Positions 836 through 23,593 of a stretch of 23,593 nt of DNA are shown here, piece after piece. A program made the position numbers and the translations under genes. The notes beneath the pieces are model-generated. The model was given only the letters and a program-made list of their open reading frames with translations. It searched no databases and was not told where the DNA came from. Source of the stretch: a virus; IMG/VR virus record IMGVR_UViG_3300048597_000392, positions 1-23,593 of that record; one strand, given 5' to 3'. Numbering within the stretch: position 1 is the stretch's first letter; every line of letters begins with the position of its first letter.

Positions 836-1050
836 CCGGACTTGCGCTGGGCGAGGAACCAAGCCGCAACGGGATCCACCTGCATGAGGTGAGCGGGCAT
901 CGGTTCTGGGTCCGGCCACTGCCCGGTCTCATCCGCGATCTTGCGTCTGCGATCCAGTTCAGCCTGCGCGCTAGGTACCCCGGTCGAGGCCATGTCCCGG
1001 AGTTCGAAGATGTCCAGGTAGGGGACGTGCTCAGGACCGAGACATGTCAC
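832..1050 (-). CDS. Hypothetical protein in the portal/MuF block
   Basis: The GTG at 1050 overlaps the stop of the upstream MuF gene (GTGA), with a purine-rich stretch (caggggtgg) just before it. It encodes 72 residues beginning MTCLGPEHVPYLDIFELRDM, with a central acidic/basic helix (AQAELDRRRKIADETGQW) and a C-terminal PVAAWFLAQRK. There is no membrane segment or recognised motif. Tight overlap with genes on both sides indicates a polycistronic minus-strand message with portal and MuF. A small head-assembly accessory role is possible but is only inferred from position. Confidence 0.6.
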   Translation of the reverse strand: MTCLGPEHVPYLDIFELRDMASTGVPSAQAELDRRRKIADETGQWPDPEPMPAHLMQVDPVAAWFLAQRKSG

Positions 1051-2564
1051 TGCGACCACCCCTGTTCCCGACCTACGCGTGCGACCCACCCGGGGCGCGT
1101 GGCTGGGTCTCCCCACACCCATTCCACGAACGCTTCGGCCACCATCTCCACAGCGTTCTGCTTCCCGTAGGCCCTCGTCATTTCCCCCACCAGTTCGTTG
1201 TGCAACTCCTCAGCCCGTGCCGTGTACCCGTGCCTGTCCACGGTATGCCCCGCTTCATGGGTCATCAACCCGGTGAGGTAGTCCGGTGATGCCTTCCAGC
1301 CGTCGACGACGCCCATGGCCTGGGGGTCGTGGATCCGATCGCCCCAGGAGCCGATGAAGTTCCGGTTCATCGTGATCTGGCGACCACCGATCTTGGCCCA
1401 GGCCCCCGCGGAGGGAATCTTCGGCGTCTCCCCCACCACGATGGTGTACCCGTCCGTGAACTGACTGGTGGTCCGCAGCGACGGCGGCCACCTGCTCATC
1501 GTGGAGCGCAGCGCGTCGGAGAGCCGTTGGGCGACCTGCGCACTGCCCGGCACGCTCTGGTGGATCCGGTACTGGTGCAGCCCGTCGCTGTACAGGTCCG
1601 CCTGCTTCAGCGAGTCGATGTCCGCTTCGCGTTGCCCCTGGGTGGTGGCGGGCTGCGCCCACTTCCATTCCTCGGTACTGATCGGGGTCACGGCGTCCCG
1701 CATCCGGGGCACTGCGCGCATCGGGTCGGGCTGCTGCCCCCGTGGTGCGGGGCCACGGCCGCGGCGCGCCCGTTCCTGGGTGCGGGCGAAGGGGCTGGTG
1801 GTGTACCGGTCCATGGTGCCGGTGGCGTCCCATGCGGCGGCGGCCTGGTCGACGAGGGCGCCGACGTCGCTGCTCGGGTCGAGGTACCCGGTCAGGGGTG
1901 TGCCGCGGGGCACGGCGAGGGTGCGGCAGCGGCACCACGGGTGGTAGGGGCCGACGCGTCCTTGGGCGGTGCGCTGGCTGGTGTAGACGGGGCCGCGGGA
2001 GGCCAGGAGCAGGCACCAGGGGCAGCCGTTGGTGGCGGGGATCCGGGCCCAGCCCAGGCCCGCGGCCTGGAGGGTGTGTTCGTGGGCGGTGCGCGCGGTG
2101 CGGGCCCCGATCCCGGCGGCGCCGCGGCCGGCGCGCTGCCGGGCGTGCTGCAGCGCCTGCTCGGGTGCGGCCCCGGCGGCGATCCGCTGCTTGGCCTCGA
2201 TCAGGACCGTCAGCCGCAGCTGCGCGGCGGTGCCGGCGGCGTCCGGGAGCAGCCCCGGCGGCGGGCCGGTGACGGTGGACAGGCCGCCGGCGGGGTCGGC
2301 GCCCCACGCTGCGGCGGCGTCACCGGCGACCGAGGCGGAAGTGGCTGCGGCGGTCCGCCACGCCGCGGCCAGTGCCGCGACGGCGGCGGGTTCGGCGGCG
2401 GTGTAGGTGTCGTCCAGGCGGCCCGGGGACAGGACGTTGACGAGGGCGTCGACGGCGGCGACCGACCGGGCCCGCACCAGCGCCAGGGTCCCGGCGTGCC
2501 GTTCGGCGGCGGCCACCGCCCCCACCGGGACGTCCGCGGTCAGCACCCCCGGCCCGATCGCCAC
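1047..2564 (-). CDS. MuF-type minor capsid protein with C-terminal zinc metallopeptidase domain
   Basis: 505 residues from GTG 2564, placed 2 nt after the portal stop; other starts nearby are possible and no strong Shine-Dalgarno sequence is seen. Residues about 115-220 carry the MuF/head-morphogenesis signature: helix LIEAKQRIAAG, then CPWCLLLASRGPVY (C181, C184) and YHPWCRCRTLAV (H208, C211, C213), a likely metal-binding cluster. Residues about 315-505 form a second domain with HEAGHTVDRHG: H436, E437 and H440 make an HExxH zinc motif, and Glu residues in VEMVAEAFVEW (473-481) are candidates for the third ligand. MuF proteins join the portal-proximal head and may be injected with the DNA. 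C-terminal enzymatic or toxin domains on MuF proteins are known in temperate phages. The C-terminal half is visibly less GC-rich than the N-terminal half, suggesting domain acquisition. Confidence 0.85.
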   Translation of the reverse strand: MAIGPGVLTADVPVGAVAAAERHAGTLALVRARSVAAVDALVNVLSPGRLDDTYTAAEPAAVAALAAAWRTAAATSASVAGDAAAAWGADPAGGLSTVTGPPPGLLPDAAGTAAQLRLTVLIEAKQRIAAGAAPEQALQHARQRAGRGAAGIGARTARTAHEHTLQAAGLGWARIPATNGCPWCLLLASRGPVYTSQRTAQGRVGPYHPWCRCRTLAVPRGTPLTGYLDPSSDVGALVDQAAAAWDATGTMDRYTTSPFARTQERARRGRGPAPRGQQPDPMRAVPRMRDAVTPISTEEWKWAQPATTQGQREADIDSLKQADLYSDGLHQYRIHQSVPGSAQVAQRLSDALRSTMSRWPPSLRTTSQFTDGYTIVVGETPKIPSAGAWAKIGGRQITMNRNFIGSWGDRIHDPQAMGVVDGWKASPDYLTGLMTHEAGHTVDRHGYTARAEELHNELVGEMTRAYGKQNAVEMVAEAFVEWVWGDPATRPGWVARVGREQGWSQ

Positions 2565-2566
2565 GT

Positions 2567-3991
2567 TCAGGCGCCGTACGCTGCTGCCTGGGCGGCCGCG
2601 GCCTGCGCCTGCTCCGCCGCGGCCAGGGCCAGGACCCGGTCGATGGCCTGCGGGCTCCACCCGAACGTCTCCAGCAGCGCCGCCAACGGCAGGCCCGCCT
2701 GCCGCAGCTTCAACATCGCGTCGGCGACGGCGCCGGGGGAGCGGACCTCGGTGTTGCGCCACACCACCTCGAGCTGGTCGTCGTCGGCGACCTGCGGCAC
2801 GTCCGCGGCGCGGGCGGCCAGGCGCACCACCTGCTCCCACGCCTCCCCCAGGTCCAGCTGGCGGCGCCGGACCTTCGCCGCGAGGCCGGACTCCGCCGCC
2901 AGCAGGGCCTCCGCGGACGGGGGGTTCGCCGACCCGCCCAGCAGGTAGTGGGCGGGGGTGCGGGTCACCGACGCCAGGTGCTTGATGTCCTGCTCGACGG
3001 CTTCCACGATGGGGCGCAGGTCGGTGGCGGCGAAGTCCCCGAACTCCGCGGCCGGGTCCTCGGCGGTCCACAGCAGGTCCGCGCCGTACCGGAACGGCGC
3101 CGGCCCCGGCACCGGCAGGCCGTCCGGGCCGAGCACCGGTTCCCCGGTGTCGGGGTCGAGCGTGTCGGGCAGCCGGATCCCGGTGGCCCACCGCTGCCGG
3201 TACGCCCCGAACTTCCCCGCGGTCAGCCGGCCCAGCACCGTCTCGGTGATCCGGTCGATCGCGGGCAGGTGCGCCTGCAGGTCGGACACGCCGTCGCCGC
3301 GCAGGTCGGGCAGGTTCGCGATCCGCACCACCGGGCAGCCGCCGAGGGTGTGGGCGGCGGCCTCCACCGGCACCCACGCCCCCGAGGGGGCCAGGTCGAT
3401 GCTGTCCACGGGGTCGCGCCACCAGCGGACCACCCGCAGGGCGGGGGCGCGATGGGACCGAGGCGCGGGCCGCGCCCACGTGCGGGCCTCGTCCGGGCCG
3501 TACCACGCCAGCAGCTCCACGCCGCCGGCGGTCCAGGTGTGCACGGCCTCGGCCAACGCCCACGGGCCGCTGCCGGCGCGGACCCCGATCGTGTCCCGGG
3601 AGTCCAGGCCCCGCACCGACGCCCCGCCGGCGGCGGCGGGCCACACCAGCACGTAGGAGGCTCCCGACACCAGGGCGTCGACGTGGACCGCGTTCTGCCG
3701 GGCGTCCAACGCGCTGCCCTGCCACAGCGCCCACGCCGCCGCGGACGCCTGCGACCCGGCGGTGCAGTTCACGCCCTCCACCACGAGCCGTTCGGCGACG
3801 GCGTCGACCACCAGGGCCCCCCACGCGGTGCGGGCCAGGTCCACCAGCCGGCGCAGCTCCTCGCTGGCCTGCCGCGGCACGTGCGGCAGGGCGCTGCGGC
3901 CCGCGTAGTACTCGTGCAGGACGTCCAGGCGGGCGGCGTCGGCGCGCAGGTCCTGCAGCAGGGACGTGGCGCGGGACAGCGGATCGGTCAT
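2567..3991 (-). CDS. Portal protein (SPP1 gp6-like)
   Basis: 474 residues from ATG 3991. It shows the usual portal layout: an N-terminal helical region (LDVLHEYYAGRSALP), a middle beta-rich section, the long helix and clip section around IDRITETVLGRLTAGKFGAYRQRWATG, then VEAVEQDIKHLASVTRTPAHYLLG, a pattern I associate with actinophage portals, and an Ala/Gln-rich end. The portal forms the dodecameric vertex through which terminase pumps DNA. It is the first gene of a minus-strand unit (portal, MuF, three small genes) although the terminase and all other head genes are on the plus strand, which is unusual. Identification is from length, motif pattern and its place next to MuF. Confidence 0.85.
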   Translation of the reverse strand: MTDPLSRATSLLQDLRADAARLDVLHEYYAGRSALPHVPRQASEELRRLVDLARTAWGALVVDAVAERLVVEGVNCTAGSQASAAAWALWQGSALDARQNAVHVDALVSGASYVLVWPAAAGGASVRGLDSRDTIGVRAGSGPWALAEAVHTWTAGGVELLAWYGPDEARTWARPAPRSHRAPALRVVRWWRDPVDSIDLAPSGAWVPVEAAAHTLGGCPVVRIANLPDLRGDGVSDLQAHLPAIDRITETVLGRLTAGKFGAYRQRWATGIRLPDTLDPDTGEPVLGPDGLPVPGPAPFRYGADLLWTAEDPAAEFGDFAATDLRPIVEAVEQDIKHLASVTRTPAHYLLGGSANPPSAEALLAAESGLAAKVRRRQLDLGEAWEQVVRLAARAADVPQVADDDQLEVVWRNTEVRSPGAVADAMLKLRQAGLPLAALLETFGWSPQAIDRVLALAAAEQAQAAAAQAAAYGA

Positions 3992-4073
3992 ACCGCGAGC
4001 CTAGGCCCGTGCTGGCCCGAAAGGACTAGTGTCAGTGGCACGGACGGACTACATTGATGGGGAGGCAGCCGGA
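3992..4073. promoter_or_regulatory. Divergent gap between portal (-) and scaffold (+)
   Basis: These 82 bases separate two divergently oriented start codons and must hold any promoters for the reversed portal block. I see no convincing -35/-10 pair on either strand. On the plus strand ccgaaaggac (4017-4026) matches the ribosome-binding region of the capsid gene, and GGGGAGG (4059-4065) is well placed for the scaffold ATG. The right inverted-repeat arm (4029-4043) also lies here. The lack of a clear promoter for the portal unit is notable. Confidence 0.35.
4029..4043. repeat. Right arm of the inverted repeat around the reversed portal/MuF block
   Basis: GTGTCAGTGGCACGG pairs with 639-653 in inverted orientation, 14 of 15 positions. 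It lies at the 5' edge of the scaffold reading frame. Flipping the DNA between the arms would give the usual order terminase, portal, MuF, scaffold, capsid on one strand. Confidence 0.45.
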
Positions 4074-4610
4074 ATGGGTGTCGAGCAGCCCGGAACGGGC
4101 GGCGAGCAGGCAGGTCAGCAGCAGTACGACGGGCAGGCACCCGCAACGGGCGCCCCCGGCGGGCAGGAGCAGCCCGGAACGGGCGCCGGCGACCTGGCGG
4201 CGGAACTGGCCAAGTGGAAGGACCTCGCCCGGCAGAACGAGGCCCGCGCCAAGGCCAACGCCGACGCGGCCAAGCGCCTGGCGGCCATCGAGGAATCGGG
4301 CAAGACCGAGCAGCAGAAGCTCGCCGACCGGCTGCAGCAGGCCGAGCAGCGGGCCGCCGCGGCGGAGTCCCAGGTCCTGCGCTCGGAGGTCGCCACCGCC
4401 AAGGGCGTCCCCGCCGCCCTGGCGGGCCGGCTGCAGGGCAGCACCCGCGAGGAGCTCGAGGCCGACGCCGACGACCTGCTGTCCCACCTGCCCACGGCGC
4501 CGCCCGGCGCCGGGGCGAAGGTCCCCCCGGTCGACGCCGTCGCCGGGACCGCCGGCGGGCACGGCCCGCGGACGGCAGCGGACGAGTTCGCCTCCTTCCT
4601 GGGGGCCTGA
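4074..4610 (+). CDS. Capsid scaffold protein
   Basis: 178 residues from ATG 4074, chosen because GGGGAGG lies 8 nt upstream. In-frame GTGs at 4029 and 4035 also exist, with gaaagga in front of them. The N-terminal ~40 residues are Gly/Gln-rich and low-complexity, with EQPGTG repeated. Residues about 40-110 form a long charged coiled coil (LAKWKDLARQNEARAKANAD onward), followed by a Pro-rich linker and a conserved-looking C-terminal end (ADEFASFLGA) that would contact the capsid protein. Scaffolds organise capsid subunits into a procapsid and leave before DNA filling. It lies directly upstream of the capsid gene, the standard position. Confidence 0.8.
   Translation: MGVEQPGTGGEQAGQQQYDGQAPATGAPGGQEQPGTGAGDLAAELAKWKDLARQNEARAKANADAAKRLAAIEESGKTEQQKLADRLQQAEQRAAAAESQVLRSEVATAKGVPAALAGRLQGSTREELEADADDLLSHLPTAPPGAGAKVPPVDAVAGTAGGHGPRTAADEFASFLGA
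4083..4185 (+). repeat. 19-nt direct repeat within the scaffold gene
   Basis: GAGCAGCCCGGAACGGGCG occurs at 4083-4101 and 4167-4185, encoding the repeated EQPGTG motif of the disordered scaffold N-terminus. A degenerate copy (CGCAACGGGCG) lies between them near 4142. It is probably a slippage-type repeat in a low-complexity coding region. Confidence 0.6.
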
Positions 4611-4627
4611 GCCGAAAGGACGGGCGC

Positions 4628-5539
4628 ATGGCGCTCACACTGAACGGGGTCGCCCAGGCGGTCCCGAAGGCGGTCGCCGGAGCGATCTTCGAACGGACCA
4701 CCGAGACCAGCATCGTGATGCGCCTGGCGCAGCGGGCCCCCACCACCTTGACCGGGTCCGCGATCCCGGTCACCGTCGGCGACGTGGAGGCGGACTGGGT
4801 CGCCGAGGGCGCCGAGAAGCACGTCTCGGACCCCGGCGCGGCCGTGCTCATCATGGAGCCGCGCAAGGTCGCCACGATCATCCTGGTGACCGAGGAGTTC
4901 CGGCGCACCGACCCCGGCGGCCTCCTGGCGATCATCCAGGAGAAGGGCGGCGAAGCGATCGCCCGCGCCTTCGACATCGCCGCCCTGTTCGGGAAGCGGA
5001 CCGTCGGCGCCGGCGCGGGGCCGTTCAGCACGTGGATCGGGCAGACCCCGCACGTCGTGGCGCTGGGCACCAGCGCCCAGGGGCAGGGCGGGGTGTTCGG
5101 CGACCTCGTCGGCGCGCAGGGCCACGTCCCGGACTTCAACGGGTACGCCCTGGACAAGACGCTGCGGGCCCGCCTGGCGAACACCCGCGACACCCTGGGC
5201 CGTGAGCTGCAGGCCGACCTGACCACGATCGGCGGGGAGCAGGCGCTGTTCGGCCGGGTCATCCACAAGGGCGACCCGACGGTGGCCGGGTTCGGCGGCG
5301 ACTGGCGGATGTGCGCGTACGGCGTCGGCATGGACCTGACCATGAAGATGACCGACCAGGCCACCGTCCGCACCGGCGGGCAGCTGGTGCCGCTGTGGCA
5401 GACCAACCAGATCGGGATCCTGCTGGAGGCGTCCTACGGGTTCGTCGCGCACGACATCGCCGCGAACTTCGTCCGGTTCGACGAGGCCGCCGAGGCCGCC
5501 GAGGCCGAGCCTGCGGCGGCGCGGGCCGGGAAGCAGTAA
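4628..5539 (+). CDS. Major capsid protein (HK97 fold)
   Basis: 303 residues from ATG 4628, with gaaagga 7 nt upstream and 17 nt after the scaffold stop. Recognisable capsid features: the N-terminal TETSIVMRLAQRAPTTLTGSAIPVTVGDVEADWVAEGAEK region, the beta pattern EPRKVATIILVTEEF, the long spine helix region, and the C-terminal P-domain strands (ILLEASYGFVAHDIAANFVRFDE). It is short for the family and has no N-terminal delta domain, consistent with a separate scaffold gene. The tail after residue 285 is Ala/Glu-rich (AAEAAEAEPAAARAG). It builds the icosahedral shell and follows the scaffold in one operon. No protease gene is seen, so maturation without a dedicated protease is likely. Confidence 0.88.
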   Translation: MALTLNGVAQAVPKAVAGAIFERTTETSIVMRLAQRAPTTLTGSAIPVTVGDVEADWVAEGAEKHVSDPGAAVLIMEPRKVATIILVTEEFRRTDPGGLLAIIQEKGGEAIARAFDIAALFGKRTVGAGAGPFSTWIGQTPHVVALGTSAQGQGGVFGDLVGAQGHVPDFNGYALDKTLRARLANTRDTLGRELQADLTTIGGEQALFGRVIHKGDPTVAGFGGDWRMCAYGVGMDLTMKMTDQATVRTGGQLVPLWQTNQIGILLEASYGFVAHDIAANFVRFDEAAEAAEAEPAAARAGKQ

Positions 5540-5551
5540 GGGGCGCAGGCG

Positions 5552-5926
5552 ATGGGCGGGCTGGTCACGGTCGACGACGTGCAGGAGCGCCTCGCGCGGC
5601 CCCTGACGTCCGACGAGCTCGCCCGCTTCGACGTGGTGGCGAGGGATGTCGAGGCGCACCTGCGCATCGCCGCCCCCCGCATCCCCGCCGCCGCGCCGTT
5701 CCCGGCGGCCGTGGTGCGGGTCGCCAGCGAACTGGTCATCAGCGCGCTGGCGGCCCCGCCCGGGGCCGGCGGGGACGTCGCCGCCGAATCCCTGGGCGGC
5801 TACTCGGTCACCTACCGGCAGTCGGGCTCGGGCGGGCTGTCCGACCTGCATGCGCAGCTGCTGGCCCCCTGGTCCCGGCCCCGGATCGGCACCATGACCA
5901 CCTCCACCCCGGTGGTGGCGCCATGA
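5552..5926 (+). CDS. Head-tail connector (adaptor) protein
   Basis: 124 residues from ATG 5552, 12 nt after the capsid gene. It has a helical N-terminal region (VDDVQERLARPLTSDELARFDVVARDVEAHLR), a second helix (VVRVASELVISALAAP) and a beta stretch with SLGGYSVTYRQ near the C-terminus. This is the pattern of the first connector after the capsid in many siphophages (HK97 gp6 / SPP1 gp15 type), which docks under the portal ring. Its stop overlaps the next start (ATGA). The family call rests on motif pattern and position, not on a search. Confidence 0.7.
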   Translation: MGGLVTVDDVQERLARPLTSDELARFDVVARDVEAHLRIAAPRIPAAAPFPAAVVRVASELVISALAAPPGAGGDVAAESLGGYSVTYRQSGSGGLSDLHAQLLAPWSRPRIGTMTTSTPVVAP

Positions 5927-6255
5927 CCCTGGCCCCGCAGCGGCTGATGACGGTGCCCTGCACCGTGGTCTCCCGCGTCCCGGACAGCACCGACGCCTAC
6001 GGCGCCGCCGTCGTCGTCGAGGAGCGCGCCGCTGCCCGCTGCTGGTACTCCGAACCGTCCACGAGCGAGCGCGAGGGCCGGGTGCTCACCACGATCACCC
6101 TGTACTTCGGGCCCGACGAGCTGCTGGACCGGGCCACCCGGGTCGAGGTCGAGGGGATCGGGTCGTGGGAGGTCGACGGGGAGCCGCTGGCGCACCGCTC
6201 GCCCCGCACCGGCGTCCTGACCCACCGCACCGTCCGCGGCAGGTCGATGCCATGA
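5923..6255 (+). CDS. Head closure protein
   Basis: 110 residues; the ATG overlaps the previous stop by 4 nt. It is a small all-beta protein: VPCTVVSRVPDSTDAYGAAV, then a Cys-Trp-containing strand (ARCWYSEPSTSERE) and a final strand region with ATRVEVEGIGSWEVDGEP. This resembles head-closure/stopper proteins (SPP1 gp16-like) that seal the connector after packaging. It is second in the connector cassette, the standard place. Its stop overlaps the next ATG (ATGA). Confidence 0.7.
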   Translation: MTLAPQRLMTVPCTVVSRVPDSTDAYGAAVVVEERAAARCWYSEPSTSEREGRVLTTITLYFGPDELLDRATRVEVEGIGSWEVDGEPLAHRSPRTGVLTHRTVRGRSMP

Positions 6256-6587
6256 GCGTCCGCTTCGAGCCGTCCCGCCGGCTGCCCGACGACCTCGGGA
6301 ACGACCCGGCGTTCCGCCGGATGCTGCTGTCCAAGGGCATCACCGTCCGCAAGGGCATCGCCGCGCAGCTGCCCGTGGGCCGCACCGGCGGGCGGCGGGT
6401 CGCCCCGTTCGCCCGGCAGGCGTTCGCCGAGCCCGACGGCACCGGCCGGGACGTCTCCGTGGCGGTGGGCACCCGGTGGCGGCTGGCCCACATCATCGAG
6501 TTCGGCAGCGCCCGCAGCCGCGCCTACGCACCGGTGCAGCGGGCCGCCCTCGCGGCCGGGCTCCGCTTCGAGCGGGGGAGGCGCTGA
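6252..6587 (+). CDS. HK97 gp10-like neck/tail-joining protein
   Basis: 111 residues. The N-terminal part holds a small helical region (LGNDPAFRRMLLSKGITVRKGIAAQLPV), followed by beta strands with RDVSVAVGTRWRLAHIIEFGS and APVQRAALAAG. The HIIEFGS...AP pattern is typical of HK97-gp10-like proteins, which assemble at the top of the tail or the neck. It overlaps its neighbours at both ends (ATGA and TGATG), in line with one translationally coupled connector operon. Confidence 0.7.
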   Translation: MSVRFEPSRRLPDDLGNDPAFRRMLLSKGITVRKGIAAQLPVGRTGGRRVAPFARQAFAEPDGTGRDVSVAVGTRWRLAHIIEFGSARSRAYAPVQRAALAAGLRFERGRR

Positions 6588-6991
6588 TGGCCCTGGCCGA
6601 CCCCGTCCTGGTGTGCCGGGAGGTCCTCCTGGCCGACCCCGCCGTCACCGCCCTGGTCGCCGACCGGGTGTACGCCACCCCCGACCTGCCGCAGGGGCAC
6701 AGCTACCCGTGCCTGCGGCTGACCCACGTCGGCACCAGCGGGCACGCCCCCGTCCCGTTCCGGCACTCCGCCTCCGCCCTGGTGCAGCTCGACGCGTGGG
6801 CCCCGCAGATGCGGGACCTGCACGAGCTCGCCGAAGCCGCACTGGACGCCCTCACGGGAACCCCGATGTTCCCCGGGGCCCTGTCCATCCGGTCGGTGTC
6901 GGAGGTGCGGGAGCTCGACGAGACCGCGCAGCCGCCGCTGCACCGGTACCGCGCCCAACTGTCCGTCCGCATCGTCCGCACCACCGCATAG
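6587..6991 (+). CDS. Tail terminator / tail completion protein
   Basis: 134 residues starting at ATG 6587, overlapping the previous TGA by one base. The sequence VREVLLADPAVTALVADRVYATPDLPQG-type N-terminus, the middle strands LVQLDAWAP and HELAEAALDAL, and the C-terminal YRAQLSVRIVR match the pattern of tail terminator proteins (lambda gpU / DUF3168-like), which cap the tail tube and join it to the head. It lies immediately before the major tail protein. No search could be run; position and fold pattern agree. Confidence 0.68.
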   Translation: MALADPVLVCREVLLADPAVTALVADRVYATPDLPQGHSYPCLRLTHVGTSGHAPVPFRHSASALVQLDAWAPQMRDLHELAEAALDALTGTPMFPGALSIRSVSEVRELDETAQPPLHRYRAQLSVRIVRTTA

Positions 6992-7002
6992 GAGGTACCC
7001 CC

Positions 7003-7527
7003 ATGGCGTTCGACACCAGCACGGTGCTGCAGGCCTTCGACGGGCAGCTGTTCGCCGCCCCCGCCGGCACCGCCCTCCCGGCCGATCTCGCCGACCCCCT
7101 GGGTGCGGCGTTCATCGGCGTCGGGTGGCTCACCGACGACGGGCTCACGTTCAACCCGAACGTGGACTCCCCCGACGCCATCCGGGGCTGGCCGCGGGGG
7201 GAGATCCTGCTGCGCCCCCCGGCCACCCTGGAGCCCGAGTTCACCTTCACCCTGGCCCAGCACGACGCCGACGCCCTGACCTGGATCACCGACGTCAGCG
7301 CCGAGCGGGCCCTGGTGCTGGAGTACCGGGCGTCGGTGGCGTCGCGGACGCACCGCCTCCTGCTGCCCCTGGTCCGGCTGTCGGATGCCGGGGACATGCC
7401 GCTGAACACCACCGACCTCGCCTCGGTGGAGATCACCGTCGGCGCCCGCCGCGACGACACCGCCGGGTTCACGTTCCAGTTCCAGCTGCCCGACGGCGCC
7501 GCCGGCACCGTGACCCGCCAGTACTGA
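7003..7527 (+). CDS. Major tail (tube) protein
   Basis: 174 residues from ATG 7003, with a strong aggaggt ribosome-binding site. The N-terminal STVLQAFDGQLFAAPAGTALP and VGWLTDDGLTFNPNVDSPDAIRGWPRGEIL resemble actinophage major tail proteins, as does the C-terminal ITVGARRDDTAGFTFQFQLPDG. It polymerises into the tail tube around the tape measure. The strong ribosome-binding site fits high expression. It is followed by the tail chaperones and tape measure in the canonical order. Confidence 0.82.
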   Translation: MAFDTSTVLQAFDGQLFAAPAGTALPADLADPLGAAFIGVGWLTDDGLTFNPNVDSPDAIRGWPRGEILLRPPATLEPEFTFTLAQHDADALTWITDVSAERALVLEYRASVASRTHRLLLPLVRLSDAGDMPLNTTDLASVEITVGARRDDTAGFTFQFQLPDGAAGTVTRQY

Positions 7528-7538
7528 GGAGCAACCCC

Positions 7539-7847
7539 ATGCCAGTGACGAAGCGGCCCGCCGGCGACGCGGGCGCAGTCATCGACCTCGACGCCCGCAA
7601 GGCGGCGCGGCTGGAGTCCAAGGGCCCCCGCACCGTCCGCTTCGGCGGCCGGGAGTGGGTGCTGAAGCCGGAGCTGCCGATGCAGTGCGTCGAGCACTTC
7701 ACCGCAGGCGACCTCGTCGGGGCGTTCGCCCTGATCCTGGTCGACCCCGACGACGCGCAGGGGTTCCTCGCCTCCGCGGAGCTGACGCGGGAGGACATGG
7801 CCGACCTGATGTCCGTCGTGTACGGGGTGGACCTGGGAAAGCCGTAG
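7539..7847 (+). CDS. Tail assembly chaperone, short (G-like) form
   Basis: 102 residues from ATG 7539 with a gagga site upstream, ending at TAG 7845-7847. It has an N-terminal basic stretch, TVRFGGREWVLKPELPMQCVEHFTAGD, then an acidic end. It is the lambda gpG equivalent, which binds the tape measure during tail assembly and is absent from the virion. Most ribosomes stop here; a fraction slip at 7835-7841 to make the long form. Confidence 0.85.
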   Translation: MPVTKRPAGDAGAVIDLDARKAARLESKGPRTVRFGGREWVLKPELPMQCVEHFTAGDLVGAFALILVDPDDAQGFLASAELTREDMADLMSVVYGVDLGKP

Positions 7848-8224
7848 CCGTCGGCCGCCTGCTCGACGAGCGGTGGCCGGCGGTGGAGGCCGATTTTCAG
7901 CAGTACTACGGGCTCGACCTCGGGGAGGAGGTGGACACGATGGGGATCAGCGCACGGCGGCTGTGCGTGCTGGTGCACGGGCTGCCCCGCACCTCCCGCA
8001 CCGCTGCGGCCCTGTCCGGGACGTGGACCCCGGAACGGACCCTCCTCGGCGTCATCGTCGAGCGCCTCGACGCGCTCACCGCCGTCACGGTCCGCGCCGC
8101 CGGCGGGAAGGTCCGCACCCCCGCCCCCATCGTGCCCAGGCCGCGCCGGCAGCAGGCCGCAGCAGTGCCCACCACCGCAGCCCTGGACGCCCTCGACGCG
8201 GCCCTGGCAAGGGGTGCCCGCTGA
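7539..8224 (+). CDS. Tail assembly chaperone, long (GT-like) frameshift product
   Basis: The short-form frame is joined by a -1 slip at GGGAAAG (7835-7841) to a frame that continues from 7841 to TGA 8222-8224. The fusion has about 228 residues: 101 from the first frame and 127 from the second. The second part begins AVAVGRLLDERWPAVEADFQ, contains GLDLGEEVDTMGISARRLCVLVHGLP (a pattern usual for actinophage T domains) and ends in an Ala-rich tail. The T part has no ribosome-binding site or convincing start of its own. Programmed frameshifting here is conserved across siphophages and sets the G to GT ratio. Confidence 0.88.
7835..7841 (+). promoter_or_regulatory. Programmed -1 ribosomal frameshift site
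   Basis: GGGAAAG is read G GGA AAG in the zero frame, two codons before the short-form stop. It is the same heptamer used by phage lambda for G-T. After a 1-base backward slip the ribosome enters the open T frame at 7841. Confidence 0.9.
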
Positions 8225-8226
8225 TG

Positions 8227-8664
8227 CTAGGAACGCTGACGGGCGCGGTACGCATCGGAACTCGCCTTCATGCACGCCCGACACTGCCGGGATCCGCGCG
8301 GGTTCACATAGGTGTTCTCCCGCGTGTACTCGTGCCCCTGCGGGCAGTGCGTTCTGAGATGCCATCTGCGCGGGCGTTGGCGGGCATTGTTGACGGCTTG
8401 GGTGACGGCCTCGAGGTGTTCCGGTCTGACGCATTCCGGCGTGTGGCACAGGTGGTCGATGTGCAGCCCGTCGGGGATGGGGCTTACGAGAACTTCGTAG
8501 ACGTACTTATGCGCCAGCACTCGCCTGCGAGGGTTGCTGAGGGAGAAGACCCCGTATCCGTACCTGTTCTTGGCGCCTGTCCAGACCCAGCAGCCGGACT
8601 GCTTGTCGATGAATCTCCACACGCGGACCTCTGCGGGCACTGGCTTCGGCCCGGGCTTCGTCAT
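8227..8664 (-). CDS. HNH homing endonuclease
   Basis: 145 residues from ATG 8664. The first part has CWVWTGAKNRYGYGVFSL, then AHKYVYEVLVSPIPDGLHIDHLCHTPECVRPEHLEAVT: the core of the HNH_3-type beta-beta-alpha-metal nuclease, with H/D/H catalytic residues in IDHLC and the downstream His. A C-terminal zinc-ribbon-like segment follows (CPQGHEYT...CRAC), probably for DNA binding. It is oriented against the tail operon, its stop facing the chaperone stop only 2 nt away and its start 17 nt from the tape measure. It is less GC-rich than its neighbours, as expected for a mobile gene. It probably copies itself into related phages lacking it. Confidence 0.9.
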   Translation of the reverse strand: MTKPGPKPVPAEVRVWRFIDKQSGCWVWTGAKNRYGYGVFSLSNPRRRVLAHKYVYEVLVSPIPDGLHIDHLCHTPECVRPEHLEAVTQAVNNARQRPRRWHLRTHCPQGHEYTRENTYVNPRGSRQCRACMKASSDAYRARQRS

Positions 8665-18206: not shown

Positions 18207-18258
18207 CGGTGGCGCGTCGGAAATGACAGGGGTGTGATTGGGCCGACGGGAGGACACG

Positions 18259-19944
18259 GTGCAGCTCGCGTCCGTTCAACCCCACGCAGGGACCACCGTT
18301 TCGGACGTGGGCAGCCTTTTCGGGAATGCACTCTTCTACGGGGACAACCTGCCCATCCTGCGCGACCAGATCGACGCCGAGTCCGTGGACCTCGTGTACC
18401 TGGACCCGCCGTTCAACTCCAACGCGAACTACAACGTGCTGTTCAAGCAGTCCGACGGGGCCCCCGGCTCGGCGCAGGTCCACGCCTTCGAGGACTCCTG
18501 GCACTGGGGCCCGGAGGCGGAGCGGACCTACCACGACCTGATCCACGGCGGGTCCACCGAACTCGCCGACCTCGCCGAGGCGCTCAGGACGATGCTCGGC
18601 ACCAGCGACATGCTCGCCTACCTCGTGATGATGGCCCCCCGCCTCGTGGAGTTGCGGCGGGTGCTGAAGCCGACCGGCTCCCTGTACCTGCACTGCGACC
18701 CCACCAGCAGCCACTACCTGAAGATGCTGCTGGACGCGATCTTCGGCCCCCGCAACTTCCGCAACGAGGTCATCTGGAAGCGCACCGGTGCCCACGGCGC
18801 GGCGAAGAAGTTCGCGCCGGTCCACGACGTGATCCTGCTCTACGGGCGGGGTGGGACCACCGTCTGGAACCGCCAGTTCCACCCCTACGACGAGTCCTAC
18901 CTGTCCACGAAGTACAGGTTCGACGACGCCCGAGGCCGTTACAGGCTCATCACGCTCCAGCCTCCCGGGCGGCGCAACGGCGCAACCGGTCAGCCCTGGC
19001 GCGGGTTCGATCCGGACAGGAAGGGGATGCATTGGAGGTTCCCTCCGCACCGCCTGGACGAACTCGACGAGGAGGGGGTCATCGTCTGGGGACGGCCGGG
19101 AACGACCCCTCAACTCAAGCACTACTTGGACCTCGAGGCCGGGGTACCGGTCCAGGACGTCTGGACTGACCTCCCTCCAGTGAACTCGCGCGCCGCCGAG
19201 CGGATCGGCTACCCGACCCAGAAGCCCGTCGCCCTGCTGGAGAGGATCATCAGGGCGTCCAGCAACCCCGGCGACCTCGTGCTGGACCCGTTCTGCGGGT
19301 GCGGCACCACCGTGGACGCGGCCCAGCGACTCGACCGCAACTGGATCGGCATCGACATCTCGTACCTGGCCATCGACATCATCGACAAGAGGCTGAGGAA
19401 GGTCTACGGCGACTCCGTCGCGGCGACCTACGAGATCAAGGGCAGCCCGCACGACATCGAGGGGGCGCGGGCCCTGGCGGTGCGGGACAAGTTCGAGTTC
19501 GAGCGGTGGGCGGTGTCCCTGGTGGACGCCCAGCCGAACTCCAAGCAGGTCGGCGACAGGGGCATCGACGGCGTGGCCAGGTTCGCCACCGGCCCGAAGA
19601 CGTATCGCCGCATCCTCGTGAGCGTCAAGGGCGGTGCCAACAACCCCGGCTTCGTCCGGGACCTCGCTGGCACCGTGTCCGCCAACCGAGCGGCGATGGG
19701 AATCATGGTCACGCTGAACCCGCCGACGAAGGGGATGCTGGAGGCTGCCGCATCGGCCGGGGTGTACCGGCACGTCAACGGCAGGACGTACCCCAGGGTC
19801 CAGATCATGGCCGTGGCGGACCTCCTCGGGGGCAGGACCCCCGACCGACCCTCGACGCTCATGCCGTACGTCGAGGGCGAGTCTATGACCGAGGAGCCAG
19901 AGGAAGGCGGGCAGGGACGCCGGCGCGACCTGCGGGGCGCGTAG
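18259..19944 (+). CDS. DNA methyltransferase (beta-class N4/N6) fused to a restriction-endonuclease-like domain
   Basis: 561 residues from GTG 18259, chosen for gggagg 5 nt upstream; a TTG at 18238 would add 7 residues. Motif IV VYLDPPFNSN (47-56) precedes motif I DPFCGCGTT (343-351): the beta-class order of amino-methyltransferases with the target recognition region between them. Residues about 408-530 form a second domain: FEFERWAVSLVDAQP, GDRGIDGVARF (D434, D437) and ILVSVKGGA (K457), which fits a PD-(D/E)XK or Mrr-like nuclease pattern. The methylase would protect phage DNA from host restriction; the nuclease domain may cut or only bind. It follows the late operon on the plus strand and faces the minus-strand lysogeny region. 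No specificity can be predicted. Confidence 0.85.
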   Translation: MQLASVQPHAGTTVSDVGSLFGNALFYGDNLPILRDQIDAESVDLVYLDPPFNSNANYNVLFKQSDGAPGSAQVHAFEDSWHWGPEAERTYHDLIHGGSTELADLAEALRTMLGTSDMLAYLVMMAPRLVELRRVLKPTGSLYLHCDPTSSHYLKMLLDAIFGPRNFRNEVIWKRTGAHGAAKKFAPVHDVILLYGRGGTTVWNRQFHPYDESYLSTKYRFDDARGRYRLITLQPPGRRNGATGQPWRGFDPDRKGMHWRFPPHRLDELDEEGVIVWGRPGTTPQLKHYLDLEAGVPVQDVWTDLPPVNSRAAERIGYPTQKPVALLERIIRASSNPGDLVLDPFCGCGTTVDAAQRLDRNWIGIDISYLAIDIIDKRLRKVYGDSVAATYEIKGSPHDIEGARALAVRDKFEFERWAVSLVDAQPNSKQVGDRGIDGVARFATGPKTYRRILVSVKGGANNPGFVRDLAGTVSANRAAMGIMVTLNPPTKGMLEAAASAGVYRHVNGRTYPRVQIMAVADLLGGRTPDRPSTLMPYVEGESMTEEPEEGGQGRRRDLRGA

Positions 19945-20024: not shown

Positions 20025-20450
20025 CTAGCGGCGGCCGCCGTCGAAGACCTTGTGGTGCGGGTCCCACCAGAGGGCGAAGAACACGTCGTCGACGATGTAC
20101 CCCCACAAACGGGCGGCGGCTGTGACTCGGAATTCGTAGAGGCAGCCCTCGGCTGCGTCCCTGACCTCCTCGTGGAGGCCGTCCCACAACTCCCGGCCCA
20201 CCTGGCGCAGGTTCACCGGCGCCACCCGGGTCAGAAGCCGCACCCCCTCGGTCGTGTGCGAGTGCAGCGCGGTGGCGTCCTGCGACGCGCAGACATGCAG
20301 CAGCTGCGCCAACGCCAGCAGCATGTCCCCATCGAGCTCCGGATCCAACGCCTGGAGCCGGGACACGTCCGCCCTCAACGACTGCCGGTGGGCCACACCA
20401 GGGACCTTGAAGTCGTTCAGCCGTGCCCGGCCCTTCTGCCGATTCCCCAC
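20025..20450 (-). CDS. Probable toxin partner of the Panacea antitoxin
   Basis: 141 residues from GTG 20450, 5 nt after the Panacea stop. The N-terminal part is helical and basic (MGNRQKGRARLNDFKV, RADVSRLQALDPELDGD), the middle contains LLALAQLLHVCASQDATALHSH, and the C-terminus has the notable VTAAARLWGYIVDDVFFALWWDPHHKVFDG. The WWDPxH ending resembles small prophage toxin-like proteins, but I cannot name the family. Panacea (SocA/DUF4065) proteins are commonly encoded next to diverse toxins, which is the main reason for the call. It is convergent with the methyltransferase, 80 nt away. It could be a non-toxic accessory protein. Confidence 0.55.
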   Translation of the reverse strand: MGNRQKGRARLNDFKVPGVAHRQSLRADVSRLQALDPELDGDMLLALAQLLHVCASQDATALHSHTTEGVRLLTRVAPVNLRQVGRELWDGLHEEVRDAAEGCLYEFRVTAAARLWGYIVDDVFFALWWDPHHKVFDGGRR

Positions 20451-20455
20451 GGGGC

Positions 20456-20926
20456 CTAGTAGTCGATGCTGACGGCCGTCGGATCGGCGTGCAGCGCCCG
20501 GTAGTAGTCGCGCATCGTGTCCAGGCTGATGCGGTCCGTCCCGGCCTGCCGCAGCGGCTTGCCTGCGCGGGCCTCGATCCACGGCCGGTCCGCGTGGGTC
20601 ATGCTGACGAGCTCGTGCGGCTCGAACTGGTCGTACGCGGCGAGGACGTCGTTCAAGAACGGGGCGTCGTAGTCGTCGATCAACTCATGGTCCCCGCCGA
20701 CGGTTGCGACGGTGTACCGGCCCCGGTGCCGGTCGTACACCTCGCGGACCACCGGCCCGTTCACCCACGCCTCGATCGGCTCCTCGAACAGCTGCACGTC
20801 CCGCAGGGCCAAGGACCACGCCTGCGCGTAGTAGACGATCTTCTGCAGCTTGAACGCCGACATCGGGCCGTCGTGCCTGCGCAGCAGGTACTCGGCGACG
20901 TCCACTGCCCTGTACACGGTCTCCAT
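20456..20926 (-). CDS. Panacea (SocA-like, DUF4065) antitoxin-type protein
   Basis: 156 residues from ATG 20926, with AAGGGGGG 4 nt upstream. It starts with the family's usual N-terminus (VDVAEYLLRRHDGPMSAFKLQKIVYYAQAWSLAL), followed by LFEEPIEAWVNGPVVREVYDRHRG, the hallmark EAW-x-GPVV-x-EVY region, then FLNDVLAAYDQFEPHELVSMTH and PWIEAR. Panacea domains neutralise unrelated toxins in PanAT modules, and SocA acts as a ClpXP adaptor for its toxin. The frame is open upstream, without a stop, to GTG 21205, so a longer 249-residue form is possible (see 20927-21205). The order here is antitoxin then toxin, downstream of the integrase. Confidence 0.8.
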   Translation of the reverse strand: METVYRAVDVAEYLLRRHDGPMSAFKLQKIVYYAQAWSLALRDVQLFEEPIEAWVNGPVVREVYDRHRGRYTVATVGGDHELIDDYDAPFLNDVLAAYDQFEPHELVSMTHADRPWIEARAGKPLRQAGTDRISLDTMRDYYRALHADPTAVSIDY

Positions 20927-21205
20927 CGTGCCCCCCTTGATGCTGGTCTGGCGACCGTAAGTGTGCGGTGCCGGTCCGACCCGTCCCGCTGGAGGGGTCC
21001 GGCGCACTACCCGCGCCCCCGCCGCGGCGCCGGGACGGCCGGGGGCCGCCCACCGTTCCGCCCACACCGCCTCCCCGTCCCTGACCGGGCACCGCCACAC
21101 CACCCACCCGTCGGCCGTCTCCTGCACCAGCTCCACGAACCCGGCCGCCCCGTCCTCGAACCGGCACCCGTCCAACGGCCCACCCACCCACACGTACCTG
21201 GTCAC
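20927..21205 (-). other. In-frame 5' extension of the Panacea ORF, resembling a separate small phage protein
   Basis: GTG 21205 overlaps the integrase stop (GTGA) and opens a frame that runs without a stop into the Panacea gene. Its first ~60 residues (RYVWVGGPLDGCRFEDG, FVELVQETADGWVVWRCPV, EAVWAERW) look like the small 'VGGPLDG' proteins of actinophages, which normally end on their own. A Pro/Gly/Arg-rich stretch then leads to the Panacea Met. Either the small gene lost its stop and fused, giving a 249-residue protein, or Panacea is started internally. The internal ribosome-binding site favours at least some separate Panacea. Confidence 0.5.
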
Positions 21206-22041
21206 GCCGCCACCAACAGCGCGGACCGTGGGGCCGGCACCACGTGCCCGGCCGCAGCCCGCAGCCGCTGCCTGGGCACGCCGACGTAGATCTGCGTCGT
21301 CGCCGGTGAGGCATGCCCCAGCAGCCGCTGCACCGCCAGCAGGTCCCCCGTGCCGTCATGGACGGTCGAGGCGAACCAGTGCCGCACCTCGTGCGGCGCG
21401 CAGCCCGTCGCGGCCTTCACCCGTCGCCGCAGGGTGCAGGGATGCAGGTGGCCCGTGAACCGGCCCGGGAACACCCAGCCCGGCCCACGCTCGAGCAGCG
21501 CCCGGCGCAGCGCCGGGTCCTCGATCGGCAGCCACCGGGACCGATCCCCCTTCCCGCGCACCGTCACCCCGCGGCCGTCGGCGTCGAGGTCCTCCCGCCG
21601 CAGCGCCACGGCCTCCGCGCACCGCAGCCCGAGCCGGGCCAGCACCAGCACCATCAGCGCGGTGTCCTCGTCCCGGACGTCGAGGCCGGCGGCCACCTGC
21701 GCGTGCGACGCCGGCCTCGCCGTCCCGGGGACCTGCCGGACCGGCGCGATCCCCAGCATCGGGTTCCGCTTCCGCTTCACCACCTTCTCCGCGACCAGCA
21801 GCCGGTACATGGAGCCCAGCGCCATCCGCGCGGACTTGTGGCTCGACGCCGACCACGACTGCTCTGCGATCCACGCCTTCACGTCCCGGTGCCCGGCCTG
21901 GACAGGGTCCACGCCGTTCACTGCGCACCACCGGCCCCACCGGCGCAGGTAGCTGCGCCACGTCCGCACCGTCTCCGGTGACAGCCGTCGGGACCGCAGG
22001 TCGGTCTCCCACAGGCCCATCGCCTCATCCCACCGCATCAT
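21202..22041 (-). CDS. int: Tyrosine site-specific integrase, C-terminus with ssrA-like -ALLVAA
   Basis: 279 residues from ATG 22041, selected because ggaggtgg is well spaced upstream; a TTG at 22092 would add 17. The N-terminal ~100 residues form a SAM-like core-binding domain (AMGLWETDLRSRRLSPETV, ALGSMYRLLVAEKVV). The catalytic domain has R140 (LGLRCAEAV), K164 (RGKGD), H217 and R220 (HEVRHW), H243 (LLGHAS) and the nucleophile Y252 (TQIYVG). There is no N-terminal arm-binding domain of obvious size. The protein ends SALLVAA, similar to the -ALAA end of ssrA tags, so it may be a ClpXP substrate. It probably recombines the fMet-tRNA core at 22775-22814. It is served by the TTGACA promoter at 22112-22141. 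Confidence 0.92.
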   Translation of the reverse strand: MMRWDEAMGLWETDLRSRRLSPETVRTWRSYLRRWGRWCAVNGVDPVQAGHRDVKAWIAEQSWSASSHKSARMALGSMYRLLVAEKVVKRKRNPMLGIAPVRQVPGTARPASHAQVAAGLDVRDEDTALMVLVLARLGLRCAEAVALRREDLDADGRGVTVRGKGDRSRWLPIEDPALRRALLERGPGWVFPGRFTGHLHPCTLRRRVKAATGCAPHEVRHWFASTVHDGTGDLLAVQRLLGHASPATTQIYVGVPRQRLRAAAGHVVPAPRSALLVAA

Positions 22042-22111
22042 CCGCACCACCTCCACCGGCCATTTCGATTCCTCATTCCCGTTGCCGTGCAATAGGAATC
22101 CTGCCGAGGGC

Positions 22112-22450: not shown

Positions 22451-22648
22451 TCATGCGCCCTCCCCGGGCAGCAGCCCGCCGGGCGCGTGGTACCGCGCGA
22501 ACAGCTCGGCGTGGATCTCCGGGAACGCCGACCGGAGCGCCTCCATGTTGAAGGTGTCCGCCTTGCGCATCGCAGCCATGACCAGCGCGGCGAACGGCCA
22601 GTCGCGCTGTGCGATCTCGAGGGACGCCTGGTAGTCGTACCAGCTCAT
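22451..22648 (-). CDS. Small conserved-looking phage protein (MSWYDYQ type)
   Basis: 65 residues from ATG 22648, which overlaps the last base of the long repressor form's stop (TGATG). The sequence MSWYDYQASLEIAQRDWPFA, ALVMAAMRKADTFNMEALRSAFPEIHAEL, ARYHAPGG follows a pattern I have seen in actinophage hypothetical proteins. It is helical and soluble, with function unknown. Its start is coupled to translation of the unintegrated (phage-form) repressor. After integration the two genes would lie at opposite prophage ends, so its expression could be switched by integration. Confidence 0.65.
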   Translation of the reverse strand: MSWYDYQASLEIAQRDWPFAALVMAAMRKADTFNMEALRSAFPEIHAELFARYHAPGGLLPGEGA

Positions 22649-23019
22649 CACGCCGCCGTTTGCAGGTCGCGGCCGCCGGGCAGCACGACGAGTGCTGGAA
22701 CGGGGCGGGGGGAGCGGGGCTGCCATGCGCGCCGCGCCCCGGCGATCAGCGTGAACGCGGGACGGGACGCTCGCAACCCAGAGGTCGCAGGTTCAAATCC
22801 TGCCCCCGCTACCAGGAAGAGGCGTCCGGGTTCCACTCCAAGGAACCCGGACGCTTTCTCTATATCCCGGGCCAGCCAGGCCACTTCGCCGCGCAGCTTC
22901 TTGTTCAGCGACGACCTCGAGATGCCCATGTGCTGGCACATCTGGTCCTGCTTGATCCGTCGAAGCCACAACAGCTCGTGGACGTTGGCGCCGATCACCT
23001 GGTCTGTCTCATCGTCCAC
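22648..23019 (-). CDS. Immunity repressor, phage (long) form with attP inside the gene and -LQTAA end
   Basis: 123 residues from GTG 23019; no strong ribosome-binding site, so the start is tentative. Residues about 12-68 are a Cro/C1-type helix-turn-helix: NVHELLWLRRIKQDQMCQHMGISRSSLNKKLRGEVAW, then IEKASGFLGVEPGRLF. Residues about 70-82 (VAGAGFEPATSGL) are the well-known translation of an antisense tRNA 3' end, i.e. the attP core. The last 41 residues (phage-only) are low-complexity and end DLQTAA, an ssrA-like end. Integration at an fMet tRNA gene should truncate the protein to about 82 residues. It is divergent from the terminase operon, so it may directly control it, and a palindrome overlaps its start. 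Confidence 0.8.
   Translation of the reverse strand: MDDETDQVIGANVHELLWLRRIKQDQMCQHMGISRSSLNKKLRGEVAWLARDIEKASGFLGVEPGRLFLVAGAGFEPATSGLRASRPAFTLIAGARRAWQPRSPRPVPALVVLPGGRDLQTAA
22775..22814 (+). other. attP: attP core: 3' half of an initiator (fMet) tRNA gene
   Basis: From AACCCAGAGGTCGCAGG onward the 40 bases contain the 3' anticodon stem, the variable loop, a complete T-arm (GCAGG, loop TTCAAAT, CCTGC), the acceptor 3' strand CCCCGCT and ACCA. I recognise this as the 3' end of an actinobacterial fMet tRNA. The anticodon CAT is absent (CTCGCAA instead of CTCATAA) and there is no 5' half, so it is an attachment core, not a tRNA gene. Integration would restore the host tRNA from its own 5' half and this 3' half. 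Confidence 0.85.
22822..22865 (+). terminator. Rho-independent terminator downstream of the attP tRNA end
   Basis: GCGTCCGGGTTCC (22822-22834), 7-nt loop, GGAACCCGGACGC (22842-22854): a perfect 13-bp stem, followed by TTTCTCTATAT. It begins 8 nt after the tRNA ACCA. On the minus strand the same bases are repressor codons for about residues 56-66. In a lysogen it would terminate transcription of the reconstituted tRNA. Confidence 0.8.
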
Positions 23020-23027
23020 CGCTGGAC
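23014..23027. promoter_or_regulatory. Candidate operator at the repressor start
   Basis: GTCCA-CCGC-TGGAC is a perfect inverted repeat (5-bp arms, 4-nt spacer) covering the repressor GTG and lying 15 nt before the divergent ATG at 23043. The position fits autoregulation and control of the divergent late operon. No second copy was noticed. Confidence 0.35.
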
Positions 23028-23042
23028 CGAGAGGCCCGCGAG

Positions 23043-23168
23043 ATGATGCTCCCGTTCGGCCTGGCCACCCGCGCCCGCCTGCACGTCACCGTCGCCGACG
23101 ACACGACGGCCCCGGCGGCCCGGACCGCGGTGAGGACCCGCGCCGACCCGCGGCTGAAGGCCGTATGA
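23043..23168 (+). CDS. 41-residue ORF upstream of terminase
   Basis: Starts at ATG 23043 (a second ATG follows directly), with cgagagg 8 nt upstream, and ends in a TGA that overlaps the terminase ATG (ATGA). The peptide begins MMLPFGLATRARLHVTVADD and is basic, with no recognised motif. It occupies the usual place of a small terminase subunit but is far too short for one. It may be a real leader-type gene coupled to terminase, or a remnant. Confidence 0.45.
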   Translation: MMLPFGLATRARLHVTVADDTTAPAARTAVRTRADPRLKAV

Positions 23169-23593
23169 CGGCGCTGCCGCCGACCCTGGGCTTCGTCGCC
23201 GCCGAGTGGATCGAGGCCTGGTGCGTGCACGGCCCCGGCGATGTGCAGGGCCGCCCCGCTGCCCTCACGCAGGAGATGCTGCGGTTCCTGCTGGAGGCGT
23301 ACGAGCTGGACCCGGGCACCGGCCGGCGCCGGGTGAAGCGGGCCATGCTGGTCCGCCCGACGGGGTGGAGCAAGAGCGAGCTGGCCGCGTGGATCGTCCT
23401 GTTCGAGGCGTTCGGCCCGGCCCGGTTCGAGGGGTGGGCCGCCGACGGCAGCCCGGTCGGGCGGGCCGTGCAGACCCCGATCATCCGGATCGTGGCCACC
23501 GAGGAGAACCAGGCCGGGAACATCTACGACGTGGTCCTGCACAACTGCCAGGAGGGTCCGTTGGCGCCGCTGGGGCTGGACGCCGGGCTGACC
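23165..23593 (+). CDS. Terminase large subunit, N-terminal part (cut by window end)
   Basis: 143 residues from ATG 23165 to the window edge. The N-terminal helix region (AAEWIEAWCVHGPGDVQGRP) and QEMLRFLLEAYELDPGTGRRRVKRAMLVRPTGWSKSELAAWI contain an unusual Walker A-like motif, RPTGWSKS (64-71); the RPxGWxKS form is typical of actinophage terminases. IIRIVATEENQAGNIYDVV follows (about 107-124), a conserved segment after the P-loop. This is the packaging ATPase. With the C-terminal piece at 1-179 it suggests a genome whose ends meet inside this gene's missing middle. Confidence 0.88.
   Translation, partial: MTALPPTLGFVAAEWIEAWCVHGPGDVQGRPAALTQEMLRFLLEAYELDPGTGRRRVKRAMLVRPTGWSKSELAAWIVLFEAFGPARFEGWAADGSPVGRAVQTPIIRIVATEENQAGNIYDVVLHNCQEGPLAPLGLDAGLT

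What the first reader, a model, noticed from the sequence alone, without database searches (positions are those of the whole stretch)
22648..23019. Integration-dependent immunity switch: attP lies inside the repressor gene
Seen: an HTH repressor ORF whose codons about 70-82 are the antisense of a tRNA 3' end (VAGAGFEPATSGL), followed by 41 phage-only residues ending -LQTAA, with an integrase gene nearby on the same strand. Known: in mycobacteriophages such as BPs, Brujita and Charlie, attP sits in the repressor gene; the virion form carries a C-terminal ssrA-like tag and is unstable, and integration removes the tag. Inference: this phage uses the same decision logic but in a different context, a ~25 kb phage with an fMet-tRNA attB and the terminase operon, not a cro gene, divergent from the repressor.
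Basis: partly seen in the sequence, partly recalled or inferred. Interest (0 to 1): 0.92.

Follow-up and report, generated by a model that had tools for sequence, protein, structure and literature searches.

The report
Phage repressor gene containing attP
A bacterial virus carries its attachment site inside its own repressor gene, so inserting into the host's initiator-tRNA gene should cut a destruction tag off the repressor; this on/off logic is already known from mycobacterial viruses, and the new parts are the tRNA used and related genes found in non-viral mobile elements.

Summary
ORF 22648-23019(-) is an HTH repressor of 123 aa. Codons 70-82 are antisense to the 3' half of tRNA-fMet (40-bp core, 22775-22814), and 41 phage residues follow, ending -LQTAA. 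The core plus the host anticodon is an exact match in 29 of 198 actinomycete genomes. Recombination there gives an 82-aa repressor that stops at TGA, which is U33 plus the CAU anticodon read antisense. The integrase (21202-22092,-) also ends -AA; its closest annotated relatives include integrases of integration-dependent-immunity (IDI) phages. All nine comparison repressors hold an antisense-tRNA peptide and end -AA, against 2 of 93 other proteins. This is a new IDI member with a new attB; no lysogen of this phage was found and degradation is untested. 'Terminase, not cro, divergent' and '~25 kb' are not reliable: the small terminase lacks residues 1-91 of its relative's and the break abuts the repressor start, so the contig probably lost the promoter, cro and early genes. 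A repressor search found relatives running in frame into tRNA-Met antisense in 14 of 151 genomes of one genus. Four such elements have both att copies and an integrase, and two carry relaxases; none has an -AA tag.

The parts
22648..23019 (-). immunity repressor gene, virion form, 123 aa, GTG start, C-terminus -GGRDLQTAA
22775..22814 (+). attP common core, 40 bp, identical to the 3' half of actinomycete tRNA-fMet; antisense codes repressor residues 70-82
22769..22774 (+). GCTCGC in attP versus GCTCAT in attB: the two differing bases are anticodon positions 35-36 and change antisense TTA TGA (stop) to TTG CGA (read-through)
   Evidence: direct sequence
22648..22773 (-). [quoted passage not shown] carries the ssrA-like -AA end
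22451..22648 (-). 65-aa ORF between repressor and integrase, overlapping the repressor stop; homologue 56% identical in Mycobacterium phage JustASigh
21202..22092 (-). tyrosine integrase, 296 aa, catalytic residues R157, K181, H234, R237, H260, Y269 conserved, C-terminus -ALLVAA
23031..23165 (+). remnant of the small terminase gene: only the part equal to residues 92-136 of the relative's 137-aa TerS
23165..23593 (+). large terminase N-terminal part, cut by the contig end; the C-terminal part is at 1-179, about 0.94 kb missing between

Best explanation
This is an integration-dependent immunity cassette of a temperate siphovirus-like phage of a high-GC actinomycete. In the virion the repressor is 123 aa and its C-terminal -AA end marks it for ClpXP-type proteolysis (inferred), as does the -AA end of the integrase. 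If integrase survives, it recombines the core with the 3' half of tRNA-fMet. That restores the tRNA and, because U33 plus the CAU anticodon reads TGA on the other strand, ends the repressor after 82 residues (HTH plus 14 residues), removing the tag; the stable short form would then hold lysogeny. Shown: gene, core, host site, reading frames, both -AA ends, kinship to IDI integrases. Inferred: proteolysis, activity of the short form, control of the decision.
For: The core is an exact tRNA-fMet 3' half present in hosts; host copies always stop the frame at the anticodon; predicted attL product 82 aa. HTH repressor. The integrase's top-listed annotated relatives include Charlie and the small Gordonia phages Emperor and GMA5; cluster N (Charlie) and cluster CW (GMA5) are published as IDI (PMC9262239, PMC5559632). 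Nine comparison repressors all carry an antisense-tRNA-type peptide and end -AA, against 2 of 93 other proteins of such phages. Catalytic residues intact. The predicted joint, a repressor N-terminus running into tRNA-Met antisense and stopping at the same codon, is seen in a genome as the best hit of a repressor search that made no use of the tRNA, with a 41-bp second core 29.4 kb away beside an integrase.
Against: No lysogen of this phage or a close relative was found. The -QTAA end is short of the classical -ALAA, and degradation was not measured. The repressor's promoter, operator and any cro gene are absent from the contig, which is broken there, so no switch region can be shown. The integrated elements that share the joint lack -AA ends in their predicted excised form, so attP-in-repressor does not by itself prove tag removal.
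Confidence: 0.83

Rival explanations
1. The repressor simply ends next to an ordinary tRNA attachment site; the read-through into the core and the extra 41 residues have no regulatory role, and virion and prophage forms are equally active.
For: In relaxase-type integrated elements of one genus the repressor also runs into the tRNA, yet the excised form ends without -AA, and in one case is only two residues longer. Three of 17 loci beside tRNA-Met stop before the tRNA.
Against: Both repressor and integrase end -AA here, an end found in only 2 of 93 other proteins of IDI phages but in all nine comparison repressors. The integrase is close to known IDI integrases.
Confidence: 0.12
2. The window's cassette is real but has a truly new context: the terminase operon instead of cro lies divergent from the repressor in a compact 25-kb phage. 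(This is a question about context and can hold together with the best explanation.)
For: The contig reads that way without a visible gap, and the terminase pieces at both contig ends fit one gene.
Against: TerS lacks residues 1-91 of the relative's 137 and the break abuts the repressor start. Relatives keep early genes and a full TerS there. No promoter-like site was found by a sigma-70 consensus scan, which is weak evidence in a high-GC actinophage.
Confidence: 0.15
3. The window is prophage DNA and the tRNA half is attL or attR with host sequence on one side, not attP.
For: tRNA halves also mark prophage ends.
Against: Both sides are phage: integrase on the left, repressor reading through the core and terminase on the right, with the two ends of the contig inside one terminase gene. 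The 5' half of the tRNA is missing.
Confidence: 0.03

Closest known systems
Integration-dependent immunity of mycobacteriophage BPs (gp33/gp32; clusters G, N, P)
   Same: Core inside a repressor gene that is co-oriented with a tyrosine integrase; tRNA reads toward the repressor; integration creates a TGA and a shorter repressor (BPs 136 to 103 aa, PMC4557955; here 123 to 82, predicted).
   Different: BPs uses tRNA-Arg and a TGA made by one base at the junction (PMC9262239); here tRNA-fMet and a TGA read from the anticodon. No cro or operator in this contig.
Charlie and related cluster N mycobacteriophages
   Same: Integrase about 33% identical over 88% of its length; Charlie's repressor ends -AA and holds the antisense-tRNA-type peptide GSNQRPAD.
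   Different: Different tRNA; a transcriptional repressor gene (cro position) divergent from rep; genome 43 kb.
Gordonia cluster CW phages (Jeanie, McGonagall, GMA5, GRU3) and Emperor
   Same: Very small temperate phages with the IDI cassette; GMA5 has an extra ORF between repressor and integrase, like the 65-aa ORF here (PMC5559632).
   Different: attB in tRNA-Lys for cluster CW; intact early region and terminases; different head gene order.
Arthrobacter phage Galaxy and relatives (Coral, Kepler)
   Same: Core is the tRNA-Met 3' half, nearly the same 38 bp; integrase-repressor order reminiscent of IDI (PMC5513430).
   Different: attP lies between genes, not in the repressor, and no degradation tags are recognised.
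Relaxase-bearing integrated elements of one actinomycete genus (G387, G535 and others)
   Same: HTH (BetR-like) repressor reading in frame into tRNA-Met antisense and stopping at the anticodon; integrase at the other end in the same orientation; core duplicated at both ends.
   Different: TrwC relaxase and ParA instead of phage genes where examined; predicted excised-form repressors end without -AA.

Membership tests
integration-dependent immunity (IDI) system | attP core lies inside the repressor reading frame | tested here: met
   core 22775-22814 codes residues 70-82 of the 123-aa HTH ORF
integration-dependent immunity (IDI) system | attB overlaps the 3' end of a host tRNA that reads toward the repressor | tested here: met
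   exact tRNA-Met 3' half in 29 of 198 actinomycete genomes, repressor antisense to it
integration-dependent immunity (IDI) system | recombination at the core gives a shorter repressor with a stop at attL | tested here: met
   in silico only: 82 aa ending VAGAGFEPATSGL, stop TGA from the host anticodon; no lysogen of this phage seen
integration-dependent immunity (IDI) system | virion-form repressor carries an ssrA-like C-terminal end | tested here: met
   ends -LQTAA; nine of nine comparison repressors end -AA, 2 of 93 other proteins do. Degradation itself not tested; some IDI repressors lack -AA (PMC8092301)
integration-dependent immunity (IDI) system | tyrosine integrase downstream on the same strand, without arm-binding domain, often -AA ended | tested here: met
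   Phage_integrase 2.6e-17, SAM-like domain from residue 30, all catalytic residues, ends -LLVAA
integration-dependent immunity (IDI) system | cro-like gene and operator divergent from the repressor | tested here: inconclusive
   contig jumps from the repressor start into the C-terminal part of TerS; region probably missing
integration-dependent immunity (IDI) system | virion form inactive and unstable, prophage form stable and immune | not testable with these tools
   needs expression and half-life assays
integration-dependent immunity (IDI) system | no dedicated recombination directionality factor | tested here: inconclusive
   none recognised in the window, but the early region is missing

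The most novel reading that the evidence does not exclude
Initiator-tRNA sites act as a ready-made repressor terminator: because U33 and the CAU anticodon read TGA on the antisense strand, integration that keeps the tRNA intact also ends the repressor at a fixed codon. Both phages and relaxase-bearing integrated elements have put their repressor gene there, so integration-controlled repressor forms are a design shared across kinds of mobile elements, not a speciality of actinobacteriophages.
Probability: 0.35. Interest if true: 0.65.

Novelty: new member of a known kind. Interest (0 to 1): 0.42.

Why it matters
It extends integration-dependent immunity to the initiator tRNA and to a phage group known here only from metagenomes, and shows how the host anticodon can supply the repressor's stop codon. 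The sister elements with the same joint but no -AA end give a natural comparison to ask what the truncation does: tag removal in phages, or something else in conjugative elements. It also warns against reading gene order from the end of this contig.

Tried and rejected
Scans of viral contigs with the whole repressor only returned tRNA genes, because the VAGAGFEP peptide is antisense tRNA; a repeat with the N-terminus alone found nothing. The genome scan with the integrase gave distant relatives without a repressor beside a tRNA. A capsid search in 395 actinomycetes gave homologues of at most 43% identity and no tRNA on the loci returned. Reading 37 host tRNA-fMet loci found no lysogen. The human-gut record MT837581 with a near-identical core is a chromosome piece with a whole tRNA. 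Relatives G003 and G005 hold no recognisable copy of this repressor. I considered that -AA ends are common in GC-rich phage proteins; the count of 2 in 93 speaks against it. A first attL translation gave 81 aa because the host flank was cut off by a script slip; one search corrects it to 82. BPs itself was not in the collection, and the founding IDI paper was not held.

Full report
What is there. The window is a 23,593-base virus record. ORF 22648-23019(-) encodes 123 residues with a Cro/C1-type HTH (Pfam BetR 3.6e-6; PHROG transcriptional repressor 5e-8). Residues 70-82, VAGAGFEPATSGL, are the antisense of a 40-nt stretch at 22775-22814 that is the 3' half of tRNA-fMet. The pattern TCAT plus this stretch occurs exactly in 29 of 198 actinomycete genomes and its reversed control in none of the rows listed. 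In all 37 host copies read, the antisense frame gives VAGAGFEPATSGL and then stops. The stop is TGA, the antisense of U33-C34-A35. In the phage copy GCTC and the 40-bp core are kept, but anticodon bases 35-36 are GC instead of AT, so TTA TGA becomes TTG CGA and the frame goes on for 41 residues to -GGRDLQTAA. The joined attL would encode 82 residues. Because a crossover to the left of those two bases would change the anticodon, an exchange that keeps the tRNA also brings in the stop; this is an inference from the sequence.

Integrase and neighbours. The integrase (21202-22092,-) has an intact set of catalytic residues and no recognised arm-binding domain before the SAM-like domain at residue 30. 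It ends -ALLVAA. Its best listed annotated relatives are integrases of Charlie and other mycobacteriophages, Gordonia phage Dogfish, and the small Gordonia phages Emperor and GMA5, about 33% identical over 88%; of these, cluster N and cluster CW are published IDI clusters (PMC9262239, PMC5559632). Between repressor and integrase is a 65-aa ORF overlapping the repressor stop; homologues are 56-63% identical in JustASigh and two viral contigs, where they sit among other small genes. An extra ORF at this place is also known in GMA5 (PMC5559632).

Comparison set. I translated the repressors and integrases of Charlie, Dogfish, Bunker, Pipp, phiGD21-1, Jeanie, Emperor, GMA5 and WST1. By eye every repressor contains a peptide of the antisense-tRNA type (for example RARTWDLRI, IRDSNPEPAD, GSNQRPAD), and every one ends -AA; most integrases end -AA or -VA. 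Of 93 other proteins from such phages 2 end -AA. The window's repressor and integrase both fit. The published description of IDI agrees in organisation, including the TGA at attL, and notes that some IDI repressors lack -AA (PMC9262239, PMC4557955, PMC8092301).

The unsound part. To the right of the repressor the contig enters the small terminase gene, but only 23031-23165, equal to residues 92-136 of the 137-aa TerS of contig L028, is present. L028's TerS is a Terminase_7 protein, and L028 has early genes and an HNH-like gene before it. The 31-kb relative G003 has a full TerS-like ORF and about 10 kb between its integrase and TerL. The break lies within about 12 bases of the repressor start codon. 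The large terminase is split over the two contig ends with about 0.94 kb missing. So the record is a nearly closed circle that probably lost the promoter region, any cro gene, the early genes and most of TerS by deletion or assembly. The claims of a 25-kb genome and of a terminase operon divergent from the repressor should not be used. The repressor itself looks whole: its first residues align with those of WST1, Dogfish, Bunker and Pipp. I cannot exclude a real deletion genome.

Looking for lysogens. No lysogen of this phage was found. A profile of five repressor N-termini was searched against 395 actinomycete genomes. The best hit, 9e-17, is an ORF in G387 that ends ...KKLVAGAGFEPTTSGL at the anticodon of tRNA-Met, with the tRNA reading toward it. 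A second 41-bp exact core lies 29.4 kb away, just beyond an integrase pointing the same way as the repressor, so attP of that element also lies in the repressor gene. The element is not a tailed phage by the genes seen: it has a 1323-aa TrwC relaxase with helicase domain and a ParA-like protein; its integrase is cut by an insertion sequence.

A family of such elements. In 151 genomes of the same genus 19 have homologues. In 14 genomes the repressor ORF runs in frame into the tRNA-Met antisense and stops at the anticodon; in three more it lies beside tRNA-Met but stops before it. Second cores beside an integrase were found for G487 (32 bp), G467 (37 bp) and G535 (59 bp), and G535 has a relaxase 54% identical to that of G387. 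Their predicted excised-form repressors differ from the integrated form but end -SGVSS, -CHTTR, -PPP or far downstream, never -AA. This serves as a control: read-through of the core does not produce an -AA end by itself. The genome names are not given by the tool; a tmRNA tag AEKNSQRDYALAA on the same contig reminds me of Corynebacterium, from memory only.

Is fMet new for IDI? Among annotated phage records listed with this core, the Arthrobacter phages opened have it outside a repressor; Galaxy's paper says its attP is outside the repressor and tags are missing (PMC5513430). M. abscessus prophi91-4 has it next to an integrase only. The IDI sites named in the papers read are tRNA-Arg (BPs), tRNA-Lys (cluster CW) and others. 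I found no published IDI phage with attP of tRNA-fMet inside the repressor, within an open-access library that lacks the founding paper.

Verdict. The anatomy meets the sequence-testable features of integration-dependent immunity, except the divergent cro region and a directionality factor, which cannot be judged. It is a new member of a known kind with a new attB, and the mechanism is likely but not demonstrated. The wider finding is the set of relaxase-bearing elements with the same repressor-tRNA joint.

Noticed in passing
window 22950-23170: Contig joint: small terminase N-terminal two thirds missing, break within about 12 bases of the repressor start; likely deletion or misassembly.
   Followed up: yes
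window 1047-3991(-) versus 4029-5539(+): Portal and the following MuF-like gene are on the strand opposite to terminase and capsid; the order and orientation are kept in relatives L009, L010, L011, L012 and L013.
   Followed up: partly
window 8227-8664(-): HNH homing-type endonuclease between tail chaperone and tape measure; relatives L010 and L013 lack exactly this piece (matches 2628-8226 and 8679 onward are adjacent there).
   Followed up: partly
window 18238-19944(+): DNA methylase fused to an Mrr-like or NA-iREase domain, absent at the equivalent place in relative L023.
   Followed up: partly
window 20025-20962(-): Panacea-domain (SocA-like) antitoxin gene with a downstream partner, perhaps a PanAT-type pair; the partner's homologue is at the end of L023.
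   Followed up: no
L093, L127-L144 and L147-L164: Relaxase-bearing or other integrated elements of one actinomycete genus with a repressor reading into tRNA-Met antisense; 14 of 151 genomes.
   Followed up: partly
L146 and L154 (G535): Second core 38 kb from the tRNA, identical over 59 bp and preceded by a fragment of the repressor end; may be a duplicated att region or tandem remnant.
   Followed up: no
L029 5818-6666: Integrase of a Propionibacteriaceae MAG ending -DMLAA, possibly another tagged integrase.
   Followed up: no
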